In this document: positions 18,612 through 48,442 of the stretch, piece after piece
Layout: each line of letters opens with the position of its first letter
Numbering within the stretch: the stretch's first letter is position 1
Assembly (NCBI RefSeq): GCF_003170075.1
Contig: NZ_PMZU01000051.1
Span: 7,586-59,870 of the forward strand
DNA from: Methanoregula sp.
GTDB taxonomy: Archaea; Halobacteriota; Methanomicrobia; Methanomicrobiales; Methanospirillaceae
Length of the DNA stretch: 52,285 nucleotides
Reading direction: 5' to 3'
Position numbers and translations under genes: made by a program
The notes under the pieces: generated by a model
What the model saw: only the letters and a program-made list of their open reading frames with translations
Told to the model about the DNA's origin: nothing
The model's database searches: none

Positions 18612-19898
18612 TTAACCGATCGTTATCGCACCGCTGGCGATCTGTTTCTTCATAGATTCCAGCTGCTGTGCCATGTATTTGTACACAGGGTGCGCCTCTA
18701 TCTCGGACGTGAGCTGTTCGATCGTCGCCATTTCATCGTCAGACAACGGATGCCCGCATTTTGCGCAGTAATGTGACGTAGGGGTGTTCACGGTCGCACA
18801 GTACCGGCATTGCTGGACCAGCAGCGGGTCCTTCGGTTTGGCTGCCGGTTTGATACCGTTTTTCTTCATGACTTCGCGTTCGACATCCTCGAAATTCATG
18901 TGGTTATACGTCTCCAACATCTTCGAACCGCGGTTTCCCCACATCATGTCCTTGATTGTGGTCTCGCTGTACCCCTTGCGGGCCAGGTCGGTTACCCGTG
19001 AGTGCCGGTAGAGATGGGCAGTCACGTGTTTTGTTATGCCGGCACGCACCACGATCTCGCGGATGTGTTTTGTTACTGCGGCATGCTTGAGGGGTTTGCA
19101 ATCACGGTTCATGAACACCAGGGCGTCGTCACTGATCAGGAACGGATAGTCAGATTTCCATTGGAGGAGGTAGGGCCGGGCAAGGGTGAGCGGTATTTTA
19201 CGGGGTTTGCCGGTCTTCCCGTCGGTGTTTATCACTATCGTATACTCGTTGACCTTGACCTGCCCCCAGGTCAGCGTGGCCAATTCCCCGATGCGTAATC
19301 CGCCCTCGTAGAGAACGGCGATCAGTGCCTTGTCGATGGGCCGGATGCACGCCTGGATCATGGCCAGGATCTCGGTCTCCGAGAAACATTGCCCGGCGGT
19401 TTTGGTCATCAAATCGCCGTGGGGTATCTTGATCTTGAGAATCTTCTCGCGCTTGCACGCGGAGATCTCGTTATCGACGAGCCATAAGAGGAATTTTTTC
19501 AAGATCGCGATCAGATCCTTCAAGGTGTTCTTCTTGTAGTGCTCGCCTTCATGCGGGGCAGTCCTGACCGGAGCTTTCTGGATGGTATCGATTGCCTTCA
19601 AGATATCGGTGTACGTGTTCTTCCGGTATTCACCGAGATAATTCCGCCACCGGATAAGATCGTAGGTGATCTTGTTGGCGTGACCGACACCGAAAATATG
19701 CTCTCCCTTGGATTCAAGGATAAACTGGTTGATGAGATCGCTATCGTCTTTCGATATCAGGCCGGATTGTAATGCCCGTGATAATGCATTGCCTGCGTAC
19801 TCCGGTTTTATGAGATGGAAGCTGCACTCCTTGAGCTTCGGGGCAACCGTGCGTTGAACCTTACCGGCAGGCAGTCGGTTTTTCACAGTACTCTGCAT
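18612..19898 (-). CDS. Tyrosine recombinase / integrase with C-terminal zinc ribbon
   Basis: 428 residues of the phage-integrase (XerC/D-like) family, which cuts and joins DNA at attachment sites through a phosphotyrosine. An N-terminal SAM-like core-binding region (about 60-160) is followed by the catalytic domain with Arg in GGLRIGEL (near 200), HLYRHSR (near 296, the His-x-x-Arg box) and Tyr in ETYNHM (near 328). The end carries a Cys4 zinc ribbon (CRYCATVN...CAKCGHPL), common in archaeal versions. All catalytic residues are visible, so it may be active. A TATA box at 19921-19930 lies about 25 bp before the ATG, suggesting a leaderless transcript. Confidence 0.9.
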   Translation of the reverse strand: MQSTVKNRLPAGKVQRTVAPKLKECSFHLIKPEYAGNALSRALQSGLISKDDSDLINQFILESKGEHIFGVGHANKITYDLIRWRNYLGEYRKNTYTDILKAIDTIQKAPVRTAPHEGEHYKKNTLKDLIAILKKFLLWLVDNEISACKREKILKIKIPHGDLMTKTAGQCFSETEILAMIQACIRPIDKALIAVLYEGGLRIGELATLTWGQVKVNEYTIVINTDGKTGKPRKIPLTLARPYLLQWKSDYPFLISDDALVFMNRDCKPLKHAAVTKHIREIVVRAGITKHVTAHLYRHSRVTDLARKGYSETTIKDMMWGNRGSKMLETYNHMNFEDVEREVMKKNGIKPAAKPKDPLLVQQCRYCATVNTPTSHYCAKCGHPLSDDEMATIEQLTSEIEAHPVYKYMAQQLESMKKQIASGAITIG

Positions 19899-19920
19899 GG
19901 CTATGCCAGTCGGAGGAGTA

Positions 19921-19963
19921 CTTATAAATGTTCTGGTTCCGACGTTCGGGCTTCTGACCAGAA
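19921..19963 (-). promoter_or_regulatory. Integrase promoter and adjacent inverted repeat
   Basis: On the minus strand CATTTATAAG (19921-19930) is a good TATA box for the integrase. Directly beside it TTCTGGT (19931-19937) and ACCAGAA (19957-19963) form perfect 7-bp arms with an inner CCGA/TCGG pair. The repeat lies between the integrase promoter and the tRNA 3' end, so it may be an integrase arm site or operator. Confidence 0.45.
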
Positions 19964-19970
19964 GTGGGAA

Positions 19971-20055
19971 TGCGAGGGATGGGATTCGAACCCAAGAACT
20001 CCTGCGAGACCAGGCCCTGAACCTGGCGCCGTTGACCTGGCTTGGCTACCCTCGC
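19971..20055 (-). tRNA. tRNA-Leu (anticodon CAG)
   Basis: 85 nucleotides with acceptor arms GCGAGGG/CCCTCGC and discriminator A. The anticodon stem-loop is CCAGG-TTCAGGG-CCTGG (anticodon CAG). A long class II variable arm (CTC/GAG stem) and a T-loop TTCGAAT are present. No intron and no encoded CCA are visible. The outer T-stem pair is T-T. A TATA box TTTATTAAA (minus strand) lies 24-32 nt upstream. Confidence 0.95.
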
Positions 20056-20124: not shown

Positions 20125-21954
20125 TTACTGCTTCTGCCCGTTCGCGTACCGCTTAAGTTCCCGCTCCCGCAGATCGATCCTACGGATCTTGCCGGAGATG
20201 GTTTTTGGGAGGGAATCGACAAACTCAATTAATCTCGGGTACTTATACGGTGCCGTGACCTTCTTTACATAGGTCTGGAGATCCTTGACCAGTGCCTCCG
20301 ATGGGGTAAAACCTGGTTTTAGAATCACAAACGCTTTGACGACCATGCCCCGGATATCATCCGGTGAACCCACAACGGCCGCCTCCTGCACGGCCGGGTG
20401 CTCGATGAGTGCACTTTCCACCTCAAACGGCCCGATCCGGTAGCCGGATGCCTTGATTACATCATCATCGCGGCCGATAAACCAGAAATACCCGTCCTCA
20501 TCCTTGTAGGCCTTATCACCGGTGTAATACCACCCGTTTATGAACGATTTTTTGTTCTCTTCGGGGTTCTCAAAGTACTCCATGAACATCCCGACCGGCT
20601 TTGGATCAATTTTGATCGCGATCCGGCCCTCTTCATGGACGCCGACCGGTTTCCCGTTCTCATCATGGAGATCGATCACCCAGCCTGGCGCAGGTTTGCC
20701 CATCGACCCGAACCGTGGCTCCATACAGGGGAATGTCCCGATGCAGAGCACGGTTTCGGTCTGGCCGTACCCTTCGTAGATGGTCAGGCCCGTTGCATCC
20801 TTCCATGCCTTGATCACCTCGGGGTTGAGCGGCTCGCCGGCGCTCACGCAGTGCCGGAGCTCGGTGAAGTCGAACTTGTCGAGATCGGCGAGGATCAGCA
20901 TCCGGTAGATCGTGGGAGGGACACAGAATGTCGAGATACCATATTTTTCAATAAGCGGCAAAAGTTCGGTCGCGTTGAACCGGCCCCGGATATCGTAGAC
21001 AAAAATTGCAGCACCCTCAAGCCAGGGCCCGTACAGTTTCCCCCATGCACTCTTTGCCCACCCGGTGTCCGAGAACGTGAAGTGGAGATCGTTTGTGTGG
21101 ATATCATGCCAGAACCGGGACGTGGTGATATGGCCAAGCGCGTAACTCTGGCTGTGCATTACCATCTTTGCCTCCCCGGTGGTTCCTGATGTAAAAAAGA
21201 TCACCATCGGGTCGGTGGCTTTCGTCTTTTTCATGCCGGGAAGGTTGACCAGTTTGGACGAGACCGGAGCCGGGTAATCGAGTTCGACCTGATAGCTGAT
21301 CCAGTGATCACGCTTACCGTCCACCAGAAACCGGCAGGTCAGGGAGGGGCACTCACTGATGATGGAATCGATCTTGTCGGCCTGATCTTCCGTGGTGATT
21401 ACCATCTTGATCTCTGCGGCATTGATGCGGTATTTCAGGTCGTGGGGCGTGAGCATGGTCGGGGCCGGGCAGTAGATTGCACCACGCTTAATGAGAGCGA
21501 TGGTTGCGATCCACCATTCCGGCACCCGGGGCAGCATGATGAGGACCCGGTCACCCTTGTTGAGACCGTATTTAATGAGCATGTTCACGACCTGGTTGGA
21601 AAGCCGCATCAGGTCCCAGAAGGTAAATTTCTTCTCCGCACCCTTCTGGTTGGTCCAGATCATCGCAATCTTGTTCCGGTCTTTCTTTGCCCAAGCATCG
21701 ATTACGTCAAACCCGAAGTTGAAGTACTCGGGGACAGCAATATGGAAGTCCCGGTATATCGCATCGTAGTCCTGCATGTTGGTCCCGGTTGCGCCGGGTG
21801 CAGTGGGTGTGCACGCGAGGGTTGGTGCATTGGGGGTAAGATGGCCGGTGCAGGCCTCCGCAATCCAGTCCGAGCGTGAGATCTTCCGTTCTTCGCAGAT
21901 CTTGTCAATATTGTTCGTTAAGGTATCATCCATGGAAACAGAATATCGCACCAT
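20125..21954 (-). CDS. RHH domain fused to AMP-forming acyl-CoA synthetase
   Basis: 609 residues. Residues 1-42 have the pattern of a ribbon-helix-helix DNA-binding domain (VRYSVSMDD strand, a first helix, then ISRSDWIAEAC). A Thr/Pro/Ala linker (43-59) leads to a complete acyl-CoA synthetase. The enzyme shows the ATP loop FFTSGTTGEAKMV, YEGYGQTE, the hinge region YYTGDKAYKDEDGYFWFIGR with its Asp, and the adenylation Lys in SGKIRR. Such enzymes activate acetate or other short or medium acids to acyl-CoA via acyl-AMP. The paralogue at 22932-24599 lacks the DNA-binding part and begins where Met60 here would be. The frame is open throughout. An internal start at 21777 (Met60) has no good ribosome-binding site, so I favour the fusion. 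Confidence 0.88.
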   Translation of the reverse strand: MVRYSVSMDDTLTNNIDKICEERKISRSDWIAEACTGHLTPNAPTLACTPTAPGATGTNMQDYDAIYRDFHIAVPEYFNFGFDVIDAWAKKDRNKIAMIWTNQKGAEKKFTFWDLMRLSNQVVNMLIKYGLNKGDRVLIMLPRVPEWWIATIALIKRGAIYCPAPTMLTPHDLKYRINAAEIKMVITTEDQADKIDSIISECPSLTCRFLVDGKRDHWISYQVELDYPAPVSSKLVNLPGMKKTKATDPMVIFFTSGTTGEAKMVMHSQSYALGHITTSRFWHDIHTNDLHFTFSDTGWAKSAWGKLYGPWLEGAAIFVYDIRGRFNATELLPLIEKYGISTFCVPPTIYRMLILADLDKFDFTELRHCVSAGEPLNPEVIKAWKDATGLTIYEGYGQTETVLCIGTFPCMEPRFGSMGKPAPGWVIDLHDENGKPVGVHEEGRIAIKIDPKPVGMFMEYFENPEENKKSFINGWYYTGDKAYKDEDGYFWFIGRDDDVIKASGYRIGPFEVESALIEHPAVQEAAVVGSPDDIRGMVVKAFVILKPGFTPSEALVKDLQTYVKKVTAPYKYPRLIEFVDSLPKTISGKIRRIDLRERELKRYANGQKQ

Positions 21955-22008
21955 GCCGGATCTGTTAGATGGTGCACTTTATCATCATTTTGTTCTTTTT
22001 CTGCACCA
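21948..22008. promoter_or_regulatory. GCACCAT / ATGGTGC repeats at the RHH-synthetase promoter
   Basis: GCACCAT (21948-21954, overlapping the start codon), ATGGTGC (21969-21975) and GCACCA (22003-22008) form an inverted pair plus an extra half-site. A minus-strand TATA-like AAATATACG overlaps the last half-site region. Such short repeats are typical of RHH operators, so autoregulation is possible. Confidence 0.4.
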
Positions 22009-22285: not shown

Positions 22286-22851
22286 CTGGAAATCTGAAAC
22301 GGCCCCGGACATTTTGCCCGTAAAAAAGTTCAAACGGAAAATTTTCCGATGCAAAAGTTTTCGTGCCTGAAAATCTCCGATCGATCATGGCAAAATCCGG
22401 AAAATCTCACGGGTTTCCCGTATTGTACCGTTGGAGACCTGTCACAAGTCCGCGTTGTTGTATGACCGGTCCCTTCGGCACCCGGACCCTGTAAAAATTA
22501 TAAGGTCGGTTTTTTTCGGTCTGGAAGTTTACGGCTGGGAAAATCTTCGGCATGAAATTTTTATAACCGGGAAGTTTTGCGGTTAAAATTTTTGTGCTGT
22601 AAATTTTTGAAACTAAAACTTTTATGGGCCAAAAATTTCGGGTTTGAAACTGTGGAGCCAGAACATGCATGTCCGGGCTGGGTGCAGTTAGCGTTGGAAA
22701 CACGGTCGGGCGTGGATCACTGGTGTCAGGTTGTCCGGGAAATCTTTTTGTTCGAAATTTTTTCGGCCGAATAACGCAGACCGGTATTTTTAGCAAACAA
22801 AAATCAGGCAGCGGAAATATTTCCGGACAAAAAACGCATGCGGGCCGGAAA
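22286..22851. repeat. 15-bp periodic degenerate repeat tract
   Basis: Most of the 977-bp gap between the two synthetase genes consists of imperfect 15-bp units with a variable GC-containing half and an A-run/T-run half. Nine units run in perfect phase from 22518 to 22652 (for example GGCTGGGAAAATCTT, CGGCATGAAATTTTT, ATAACCGGGAAGTTT). Seven more run from 22732 to 22836, and at least three from 22316 to 22360. Stop-free frames on the minus strand follow from the period being divisible by three. I see no start signals for a gene. The remainder of the gap (22050-22285) holds nothing recognisable. Confidence 0.8.
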
Positions 22852-22931
22852 AACAGGAACGTGAATCTCCCTGCCTGCCTCTGTGAATAATCCAATCAGG
22901 GTGCGTTGACCCTGGTCGGCCTGCCACCGGA

Positions 22932-24599
22932 TTACTTGAATTCCCGGTACTTCCGCAGTTCCTTCTCGCGCAGTTCGGCCCTCCGTATCTTGCCGGAATG
23001 GGTCTTTGGGAGTTCGGTGACAAATTCGATTTCTCTCGGATACTTGTACGGCGCCGTGGTGCGTTTCACGTAGGACTTGATCTCTTTTACCAACGTTTCT
23101 GACGGCTCGTAGCCCTTATTTAAGACGACAAATGCCTTGACGATCAGGCCCCTGATCCGGTCCGGTGCGCCCACGACTGCTGCTTCCTGCACGGCCGGGT
23201 GTTCGATGAGCGCGCTCTCAACCTCGAACGGCCCGATCCGGTAGCCGGACGATTTGATCACATCATCGTCGCGGCCGATGAACCAGAAGTAACCGTCCTC
23301 GTCCTTGTACGCCTTGTCTCCCGTGTAATACCAGCCGTTCATAAATGATTTTTTGTTCTCTTCGGGGTTATCAATGTACTCCACAAGAAGGCCGGGTGGC
23401 GGGGGGTTGCAGGAGATCGCTATTCGTCCCTCCTCGCGGACGCCGACCGGTTTTCCCGCATCGTCATGGATTTCAACATTCCAGCCGGGCGAGGGTTTCC
23501 CCATTGAGCCGGGTTTTACCTCAAGGCACGGGAACGCGGCGACGCAGCAGCACGTCTCGCTCTGGCCGTAGCCTTCGTGGATAGTAAGGCCGGTGCCTGC
23601 CTTCCAGACCCGGATCACCTCCGGGTTGAGGGGTTCGCCCGCACTCGTACAGTGGCGCAGTGAGGAGAGATCGAACTTATCGAGATCGGCAAGGATCAGC
23701 ATCCGGTAGATTGTAGGCGGGCAGCAGAACGTCGTAATCTGGTATCTCTCAAGGAGCGGGAGTATCTCGGTCGCGTTGAATTTCCCGACAAAGTTGTACA
23801 CAAAGAGGCAGGCGCCTTCGATCCACTGGCCGAAGATCTTACCCCACCCGCATTTTGCCCAGCCGGTATCAGTGACCGTGAAGTGCAGGTCGTTGTGCCG
23901 AATGTCCTGCCAGAACCGGGCGGTGACGATCTGGCCGAGCGGGTGGGCGTGGTTGTGGAGCACCATCTTTGGCTCCCCCACGGTGCCGGAGGTAAAATAG
24001 ATCAGCATCGGGTCGGTGTTTTTCGTGCGCTGCTGGTCCGGGATGCTTACGGAATGGTGCGAAACCGGCGCCGGGTAGAGCAGCTCGTAGGGCCAGCTTG
24101 CCCAGCCTTCGAGTTCACCATCGACAACAAACCGGCAGGTGAGCGTCGGGCACTCGTTGCAAATCTCCTTGACCTTGCTCGAATTTTCAAGATTGGTAAT
24201 GACCATCCGGAATTTGCCCTTGTTGACCCGGTATTTTATGTCTCGTGGGGTGAGCATGGTCGGGCAGGGGCAAAAGACCGCGCCAAGCTTGATGAGCGCG
24301 ACAACGAAGATCCACCACTCGGGAATCCGGGGAAGCATGATGAGGACCCGGTCGCCTTTGTTGATCCCGTACTTCAGGAGCACGTTTGCTGCCTGGTTGG
24401 AGAGGTTGGACATGTCGAGGAAGCTGAACTTCTTTTCCTCACCCTGCTGATTTGCCCAGATCATGGCAAGCTTGTTTCGGTCTTTTTTTGCCCAGGCATC
24501 TACGACATCAAAACCGAAGTTGAAGTACTTGGGAACCTCGATTGAGAATGTTGCCTTCACTTGTTCGTAATTTTCCATGTTATGCTGGTCTTCACCCAT
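22932..24599 (-). CDS. AMP-forming acyl-CoA synthetase (acetyl/medium-chain type)
   Basis: 555 residues, closely similar along its full length to the enzyme part of the RHH fusion at 20125-21954. Motifs are IYFTSGTVGEPKMVLHN (ATP loop), HEGYGQSE, YYTGDKAYKDEDGYFWFIGR and KTHSGKIRR with the adenylation Lys. It activates a carboxylic acid with ATP and CoA, giving AMP and pyrophosphate; in methanogens such enzymes feed acetate or branched acids into biosynthesis. The substrate cannot be read from sequence alone. It starts with a short polar N-terminus and lacks the RHH domain. It diverges from the tbp gene across about 190 bp and probably has its own promoter. Confidence 0.92.
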   Translation of the reverse strand: MGEDQHNMENYEQVKATFSIEVPKYFNFGFDVVDAWAKKDRNKLAMIWANQQGEEKKFSFLDMSNLSNQAANVLLKYGINKGDRVLIMLPRIPEWWIFVVALIKLGAVFCPCPTMLTPRDIKYRVNKGKFRMVITNLENSSKVKEICNECPTLTCRFVVDGELEGWASWPYELLYPAPVSHHSVSIPDQQRTKNTDPMLIYFTSGTVGEPKMVLHNHAHPLGQIVTARFWQDIRHNDLHFTVTDTGWAKCGWGKIFGQWIEGACLFVYNFVGKFNATEILPLLERYQITTFCCPPTIYRMLILADLDKFDLSSLRHCTSAGEPLNPEVIRVWKAGTGLTIHEGYGQSETCCCVAAFPCLEVKPGSMGKPSPGWNVEIHDDAGKPVGVREEGRIAISCNPPPPGLLVEYIDNPEENKKSFMNGWYYTGDKAYKDEDGYFWFIGRDDDVIKSSGYRIGPFEVESALIEHPAVQEAAVVGAPDRIRGLIVKAFVVLNKGYEPSETLVKEIKSYVKRTTAPYKYPREIEFVTELPKTHSGKIRRAELREKELRKYREFK

Positions 24600-24790: not shown

Positions 24791-25345
24791 ATGGCTGACA
24801 AACGGTACGATTCATTGAAAATTGAGAATATCGTGGCTTCCGGAGTTATCGCCGAGTCCATTGATCTCAACGATGTATCTAGCAAGATCAAGGGCTGCGA
24901 TCTCAATACGAAAAGGTTCCCCGGGGCGGTCTACCGTATCGAGAAACCGAAAATTGCATCCCTGATCTTTTCGTCGGGGAAGGTAGTGCTCACCGGTATC
25001 CGTGACGACAAGGCATTAAAAGACGGGCTTGCGATCATTATCAAGTCCCTCAAGGAAGCCGGTGTCGACACGCTCAAAGTTCCTAGGGTTGCGGTTACCA
25101 ATATCGTCTGTTCCTATGATATCGGCAAGTACATCAACCTCAATAAGGTCGTTGTCACCCTCAATCTCGAAAATATCGAGTACGAACCCGAGCAGTTCCC
25201 GGGCCTTGTATACCGTATCAAGGATCCAAAGATTGTCGCGCTCCTCTTCTCTTCCGGAAAAATCATTCTGACCGGTGGGAAAACCGTCGAAGATATCAAG
25301 AAGGGCCTCGATTTCCTCGAACAGAAACTTGAAAGCATTATGTAA
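24791..25345 (+). CDS. tbp: TATA-box-binding protein
   Basis: 184 residues made of two similar halves of about 90 residues, the saddle fold of archaeal TBP. The repeated signatures are FPGAVYRIEKPKIASLIFSS and FPGLVYRIKDPKIVALLFSS, each followed by GK-hydrophobic-LTG. It binds the TATA box and recruits TFB and RNA polymerase. Full length, with no acidic C-terminal tail. It stands alone, divergent from the acyl-CoA synthetase and convergent with the Lhr operon. A clear terminator follows. Confidence 0.98.
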   Translation: MADKRYDSLKIENIVASGVIAESIDLNDVSSKIKGCDLNTKRFPGAVYRIEKPKIASLIFSSGKVVLTGIRDDKALKDGLAIIIKSLKEAGVDTLKVPRVAVTNIVCSYDIGKYINLNKVVVTLNLENIEYEPEQFPGLVYRIKDPKIVALLFSSGKIILTGGKTVEDIKKGLDFLEQKLESIM

Positions 25346-47998: not shown

Positions 47999-48029
47999 TA
48001 GTTTTGGATAGTTCAGACAAGCGTGCTCT

Positions 48030-48162
48030 CGGGGTTTCACCCCCGCCGCACGGGCACCTCCTGAGGTGCGAGAGGACTCATCTCTCGGGGGGATGTGGGT
48101 GTCAGCCTCCATCCTCTAAATCTGCCAAAGCCAGAGGCATGCTACCCAACTTACGGGCTGAC
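48030..48162 (+). ncRNA. Candidate structured RNA upstream of the TnpB-like gene
   Basis: Several consecutive perfect pairings occur in 133 bases: CGGGG/CCCCG (48030-48045), GCACCT/AGGTGC (48054-48069), CGAGAG/CTCTCG (48069-48087), and GTCAGCC (48101-48107) with GGCTGAC (48156-48162). The last encloses CCTCT/AGAGG (48113-48137). No reading frame explains them. Strand is uncertain because the pairings are symmetrical. It could be an RNA of the adjacent TnpB-like element or an independent RNA. Confidence 0.45.
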
Positions 48163-48184
48163 AATTCCGGAAAAAATCCGGCCC

Positions 48185-48247
48185 TTGGGGGTACCCCCCA
48201 AAAAAAGAGTGGCACCCCCTCTCTAGAGTAAAGAGGGGGGTACCCCC
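48185..48247. repeat. GC-rich palindromes centred on GGTACC
   Basis: TTGGGGGTACCCCC (from 48185, ending in CAA) and GGGGGGTACCCCC (48235-48247) are palindromic. ACCCCCTCT (48214-48222) also pairs with AGAGGGGGGT (48232-48241). Clustered hairpins of this type occur at IS200/IS605-type ends. Between here and 48442 I see nothing else recognisable. Confidence 0.5.
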
Positions 48248-48442
48248 AATTCCCCCAAAATATTCCCCCTATACATAATCCCGCACGATTAATCATCTCT
48301 TTTTCAAATCCGGGTCTTTCTACCGCAAGATATAAAGGAACGGGGTGCATAATCACGAACAAGGACAGGAGGAACAAAACACCGGAGAAACAGTTACCGT
48401 GTAAAGGCAGTTTGTACCGCAGGCGAACTTGGGTAGGAAAAG

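What the first reader, a model, noticed from the sequence alone, without database searches (positions are those of the whole stretch)
22286..22851. Exact 15-bp periodicity over hundreds of bases of non-coding DNA
The gap between the two synthetase genes is built of degenerate 15-mers, each with an A-run followed by T at the same offset. Nine keep perfect phase (22518-22652) and seven more run at 22732-22836. The units are too diverged to be a simple satellite, yet phase is kept, so selection on spacing is plausible. Options are a protein-binding array, a chromatin feature (archaeal histone dimers cover about 30 bp, twice this period) or a decayed repetitive peptide gene (5-residue period on the minus strand).
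Basis: seen in the sequence. Interest (0 to 1): 0.75.

Follow-up and report, generated by a model that had tools for sequence, protein, structure and literature searches.

The report
Constrained AT-palindrome arrays in methanogen DNA

Summary
The periodicity is real: autocorrelation at 15/30 bp exceeds all 1000 dinucleotide shuffles. The true step is about 15.4 bp, and in Methanoregula the full unit is 31 bp: two unlike half-units, each GAAA-n-TTT flanked by G/C. Three array blocks exist (22304-22383, 22494-22666, 22732-22851). Similar arrays lie at one other locus of this genome, at several loci in three Methanoregula relatives, and in a second genus of the family (2 of 40 genera in the order). 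A model trained only on other loci scores the window 54.7 bits against 14.3±2.0 for shuffles. The arrays are not coding, show no convincing RNA fold, and match no phage, plasmid or Rfam record. Between orthologous or paralogous copies, informative unit positions are 79.5% identical, other unit positions 68.8%, flanks 66.4%; neighbouring units are no more alike than units of different arrays. This favours constraint on unit and spacing over a young satellite. Best reading: a DNA-level array of palindromic sites, 1.5 helical turns apart, often at gene 3' ends; a multi-U-tract bidirectional terminator is the main functional rival. The binder is unknown.

The parts
22304..22383 (+). array block A (about 5 half-units); orthologous block in G008 (L047)
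   Evidence: cyclic-model score 35 bits; alignment with G008
22384..22493 (.). non-array spacer between blocks A and B
   Evidence: no array score; 74% identical to G008
22494..22666 (+). array block B, the clearest (about 11 half-units, 5-6 double units of 30-31 bp)
   Evidence: 84.9 bits with the 15-bp model; 54.7 bits with a 31-bp model trained on other loci only; unit split
22667..22731 (.). non-array spacer between blocks B and C
22732..22851 (+). array block C, weaker (7-8 half-units)
   Evidence: Fourier peak about 15; 25.3 bits over its best part with the model from other loci; covariance-model hits at G000:C63:30321-30418
20125..21954 (-). flanking gene: AMP-binding acyl-CoA synthetase (ACS1) with a probable N-terminal ribbon-helix-helix domain
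   Evidence: PF00501 8.6e-70; PF01402 E=0.014
22932..24599 (-). flanking gene: second AMP-binding synthetase (ACS2); its stop codon lies 81 bp from block C
   Evidence: PF00501 2.2e-64; the tandem pair is seen in many genomes of the genus

Best explanation
The tract is one member of a small family of intergenic DNA arrays in Methanoregulaceae. Each array is a row of short AT-palindromes, (C/G)GAAA-n-TTT(C/G), set about 15.5 bp apart (about 1.5 helical turns). In Methanoregula they alternate as two half-unit types, giving a 31-bp unit of about three turns, so that every second site faces the same way. Shown: the sequence pattern, the recurrence, the non-coding nature and the position-specific constraint. 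Inferred: a dimeric DNA-binding or nucleoid protein recognises the palindromes cooperatively along the DNA and makes a fixed protein-DNA block at gene ends, limiting read-through, supercoil spread or chromatin spread, in the manner of REP/BIME elements. The protein is not identified.
For: Period far above shuffles. A model trained only on other loci scores the window array 54.7 bits against shuffles 14.3±2.0, maximum 20.2. Arrays occur at several loci in G000, G008, G010, G032 and in genus g20 of the same family. Orthologous positions keep arrays: window = G008_C500; G000_C56 = G032_C81 beside DUF1614 and a tRNA (alignments); others inferred from shared flanks. Phase-specific conservation 79.5 vs 68.8% (p=4.6e-5), flanks 66.4%, same direction in all five pairs, absent in a neutral-decay simulation. 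Neighbouring units no more alike at weak phases than units of different arrays (0.324 vs 0.326). AAA[n]TTT 169 against 66±9 in shuffles while TTT[n]AAA is not enriched (33 vs 36±6): an ordered palindrome, not mere AT-richness. A/T blocks ordered at 15.5 bp, not 10.5. By a simple ORF caller 7 of 12 loci are convergent, background 28 of 97 (p about 0.03 by hand).
Against: No binding protein identified; MC1, a methanogen DNA protein with a 15-bp site (from memory), is absent from all 39 genomes of the genus. Constraint is modest, and most single pairs are not significant alone; the five pairs share sequences and so are not independent. Copy number is low (two loci found in this draft genome, one in complete G010) and the window locus is unoccupied in most of the genus, so it is not essential there. 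Cooperative binding is untested.
Confidence: 0.45

Rival explanations
1. Bidirectional multi-U-tract terminator: each AnTn block gives a T-run on both strands, so an array offers many U4+ signals to RNA polymerase and aCPSF1 from either side.
For: T4+ and A4+ runs mostly about 2-5 per 100 bp on both strands against 0.43 in the genome sample; aCPSF1 present, 979 bits; in M. maripaludis efficacy rises with the number of U4 tracts and two U4 tracts are needed for aCPSF1 binding (PMC8716108); arrays begin roughly 30-100 bp after a stop codon at several loci and 7 of 12 are convergent.
Against: Needs neither the A-before-T order nor the 15.5/31-bp phase nor conserved G/C positions; other genes in the window have 0-4 T4+ runs in 200 bp and manage without arrays; the window array is symmetric although both neighbours read leftwards.
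Confidence: 0.22
2. Old, functionless tandem-repeat element spread by duplication and now decaying; the phase survives because repeats change by whole units.
For: Gaps between copies cluster at 30-32 bp; G032 elements are 71-82% alike over 600-1100 bp including flanking sequence; an insertion-like state at the ACS locus in G000 and G008 only, of the loci looked at; patchy distribution.
Against: Phase-specific conservation, absent in the neutral simulation; no excess likeness of neighbours; array character kept at an orthologous locus with about 50-70% identity.
Confidence: 0.25
3. Structured non-coding RNA transcribed from the element.
For: Some hairpins with compensatory changes (CCGG..CCGG against CCAA..TTGG; GTTAGTT..AACTAAC).
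Against: Consensus fold only -16.4 kcal over 434 columns with an unfavourable covariation term, reverse strand -9.3; single-sequence z -0.2 to -2.9; no Rfam match.
Confidence: 0.04
4. Decayed or living gene for a protein with a 5-residue repeat.
For: Open frames exist on the minus strand (22407-22895, 162 aa).
Against: No Pfam match; steps alternate 15/16 bp; substitutions show no 3-base pattern (39/39/35).
Confidence: 0.01

Closest known systems
REP/BIME elements of bacteria
   Same: Intergenic palindromic repeats, dispersed, mostly between convergent or unidirectional genes (PMC3733652); BIMEs alternate two palindrome types (memory).
   Different: REP units are 20-40 bp single palindromes in high copy; here 15.5-bp AT half-sites in long arrays at few loci, in archaea; no GTAG/CGTC tag or REP transposase was looked for.
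Archaeal U-tract terminators (aCPSF1/FttA-dependent)
   Same: Several T4+ runs after stop codons.
   Different: Runs on both strands, fixed 15.5-bp spacing, A-before-T order, 100-500 bp long.
Iteron or centromere arrays (parC-like, plasmid origins)
   Same: Direct arrays of protein sites with spacing tied to the helix (memory).
   Different: No partition or replication gene seen next to the arrays; no plasmid match.
Archaeal histone-positioning DNA
   Same: 31 bp is near the footprint of one histone dimer; histones present in 37 of 39 genomes.
   Different: No 10-bp order; A/T-only pentamers are excluded from archaeal nucleosomes.

Membership tests
REP/BIME elements | 20-40 bp palindromic units dispersed in high copy | tested here: not met
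   half-units about 15.5 bp in arrays; two loci found in this draft genome
REP/BIME elements | location between convergent or unidirectional genes | tested here: inconclusive
   7 convergent, 3 tandem, 2 divergent by a simple ORF caller; background convergent 28, tandem 44, divergent 25
Archaeal U-tract terminator | two or more U4 tracts downstream of a stop codon | tested here: met
Archaeal U-tract terminator | transcript 3' ends at the tract | not testable with these tools
   needs Term-seq
Simple satellite / minisatellite | neighbouring units more alike than distant ones | tested here: not met
   0.324 vs 0.326 at weak phases; not called by TRF
Curved-DNA (phased A-tract) element | A-tracts at about 10.5 bp | tested here: not met
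   order strongest at 15.5 bp in most arrays
MC1-bound DNA | MC1 gene present | tested here: not met
   0 of 39 genomes, control genomes positive
Structured RNA | conserved fold with covariation | tested here: not met
Protein-coding gene | codon-periodic substitution | tested here: not met
Viral or plasmid element | homologues in phage or plasmid records | tested here: not met
   no matches; viral-contig patterns gave none but one chance hit

The most novel reading that the evidence does not exclude
A lineage-specific chromosome-organising system of Methanoregulaceae: an unknown dimeric nucleoid protein coats 15.5/31-bp palindrome arrays at a few gene-end sites and forms boundaries, comparable to BIMEs or centromere-like arrays but with its own protein and spacing rule.
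Probability: 0.25. Interest if true: 0.8.

Novelty: new variant of a known kind. Interest (0 to 1): 0.55.

Why it matters
Few non-coding DNA elements of archaea are known to show constraint tied to spacing. This family gives a clear sequence rule, natural copies at orthologous sites, and sister loci lacking it, so binding, termination and chromatin roles can be tested directly in cultivated Methanoregula.

Tried and rejected
Coding repeat gene. Structured RNA. MC1 binding. Curved DNA. Promoter or TATA arrays: TTT[n]AAA not enriched. Plasmid, phage or virus origin. A strong model hit at L015:15099 was a masked run of N. The strongest 14.5-bp Fourier signal in the window (48161-48400) is C-rich DNA without AnTn units. 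Weak hits in G013/G019/G030/G033: the two I read (L123, L125) are a different GC-rich palindromic repeat. A first conservation test that conditioned on consensus match was biased and was replaced by the phase-only test. Whether element copies within one genome convert each other stays unsettled: the tree mixes locus and species clusters.

Full report
OBSERVATION. The gap between the two minus-strand synthetase genes (stop of ACS2 at 22932, start of ACS1 at 21954) holds three blocks of repeated A-then-T runs: 22304-22383, 22494-22666 and 22732-22851. Autocorrelation over 22286-22851 peaks at lags 15 and 30 (z about 5; none of 1000 dinucleotide shuffles exceeded 4.43 at any of 60 lags), and Fourier analysis gives 15.4 bp. 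Cyclic models trained and tested on different groups of loci prefer a 31-bp unit of two half-units (518 bits against 434-458 for 15, 16, 30 and 32), and element copies differ by gaps of 30-32 bp more often than by other lengths above 3 bp. The consensus 31-mer is AAGCCGAAAAATTTTCGGCCTGAAATTTTTA.

DISTRIBUTION. In its own draft genome (1.92 Mb, 77 contigs) one other clear array was found, at C56:67733-67938. Across 39 genomes of the genus, strong arrays occur in G000, G008, G010 and G032 (sequences). Named matches identify G008 as a SPRUCE peatland Methanoregulaceae genome and G032 as Methanoregula sp. STF2_46; the exact size of G010 suggests M. boonei 6A8 (memory). Over 232 genomes of the order only this genus and genus g20 of the same family carry strong hits; g20 arrays have periods 15.2-16.2. 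The shared feature between genera is the half-unit; the 31-bp alternation does not transfer to g20 (31 bp 364 bits, 16 bp 357, 47 bp 374). No phage or plasmid record matches, and patterns in viral contigs gave only one chance hit.

LOCUS HISTORY. The synthetase pair was found together in many genomes of the genus, with gaps of about 90-380 bp where both coordinates are listed; only G000 (990 bp) and G008 showed arrays among the eight loci scanned. G008 aligns with the window over 686 bp at 75.7%. The C56 array of this genome and the C81 array of G032 lie at the same place, between a DUF1614 gene and a tRNA. Other orthologous positions (G032_C87 with G008_C259; G032_C246 with G010) are inferred from shared flanking sequence. 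So arrays are old enough to be shared by species at several positions, and patchy.

CONSTRAINT. With phases assigned by a model and no conditioning on consensus, informative phases are 79.5% identical (722 sites), weak phases 68.8% (442), flanks 66.4% (2388); p=4.6e-5 for informative against weak. All five pairs point the same way, two individually below 0.05; a neutral-decay simulation shows no difference. The pairs share sequences, so the p value is indicative only. Neighbouring units are no more alike at weak phases than units of different arrays (0.324 vs 0.326), so no trace of recent tandem duplication was seen. AAA[n]TTT is 2.6-fold over shuffles while TTT[n]AAA is not enriched.

WHAT IT IS NOT. 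No codon pattern in substitutions, no convincing RNA fold or Rfam family, no 10.5-bp A-tract phasing, no MC1 gene in the genus. Histones are present, but A/T-only pentamers are excluded from archaeal nucleosomes (PMC3691661).

MECHANISM. I favour a DNA-level array of palindromic binding sites spaced 1.5 turns, with every second site in register at 31 bp. Shown: pattern, recurrence, position-specific constraint. Inferred: a dimeric binder and a block or boundary role at gene ends. By a simple ORF caller 7 of 12 loci are convergent against 28 of 97 background gaps. The main functional rival is a bidirectional terminator array: U4-tract number predicts termination in M. maripaludis (PMC8716108) and aCPSF1 is present. 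It explains the T-runs on both strands but not the ordered palindrome or the phase. A functionless decaying repeat remains possible (0.25).

NOVELTY. Searches of the open-access library (for the element itself) found no description of such arrays; subscription papers and preprints were not searched. It is closest in kind to REP/BIME intergenic repeats but fails their unit size and copy number.

Noticed in passing
window 20125-21954 (-): Acyl-CoA synthetase with an N-terminal stretch resembling a ribbon-helix-helix DNA-binding domain (PF01402 E=0.014, below cut-off), seemingly kept at the start of orthologues; GGTGCAC motifs lie upstream at 21971 and 22208 (16 in the window, 6.3 expected): possibly a self-regulating enzyme.
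   Followed up: partly
window 18612-20055: Tyrosine recombinase gene beside a tRNA-Leu (19971-20055), a possible integration site; Rfam at gathering score did not report the tRNA that ARAGORN found.
   Followed up: no
window 24791-25345 (+): TATA-binding protein gene next to the second synthetase.
   Followed up: no
L117:5097-5515; copies in L014:6369-6534, L008:5464-5645, L015:18501-18663, L017:16486-16538: GC-rich dispersed repeat with hairpins (CCCCCGAGGGGG; GGTATTACCTG..CAGGTAATAC) beside some array elements and alone elsewhere in this genome; faint likeness to window 48025-48074.
   Followed up: partly
L115:4101-4343 and L116:5045-5286 (G032): Shorter related elements sharing an ACGACGGAG-like word and a GTTAGTT hairpin extended by a CCAACAGTTGG palindrome.
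   Followed up: partly
L123, L125 (G019, G030); weak hits also in G013 and G033: MITE-like palindrome CCCCTGCCCGACCCCCCT..AGGGGGGTCGGGCAGGGG with A/T runs at its edge (the G013 and G033 loci were not read).
   Followed up: partly
window 48161-48400: Strongest 14.5-bp A/T Fourier signal of the window, in C-rich DNA with GGGGGTACCCCC-like palindromes.
   Followed up: no
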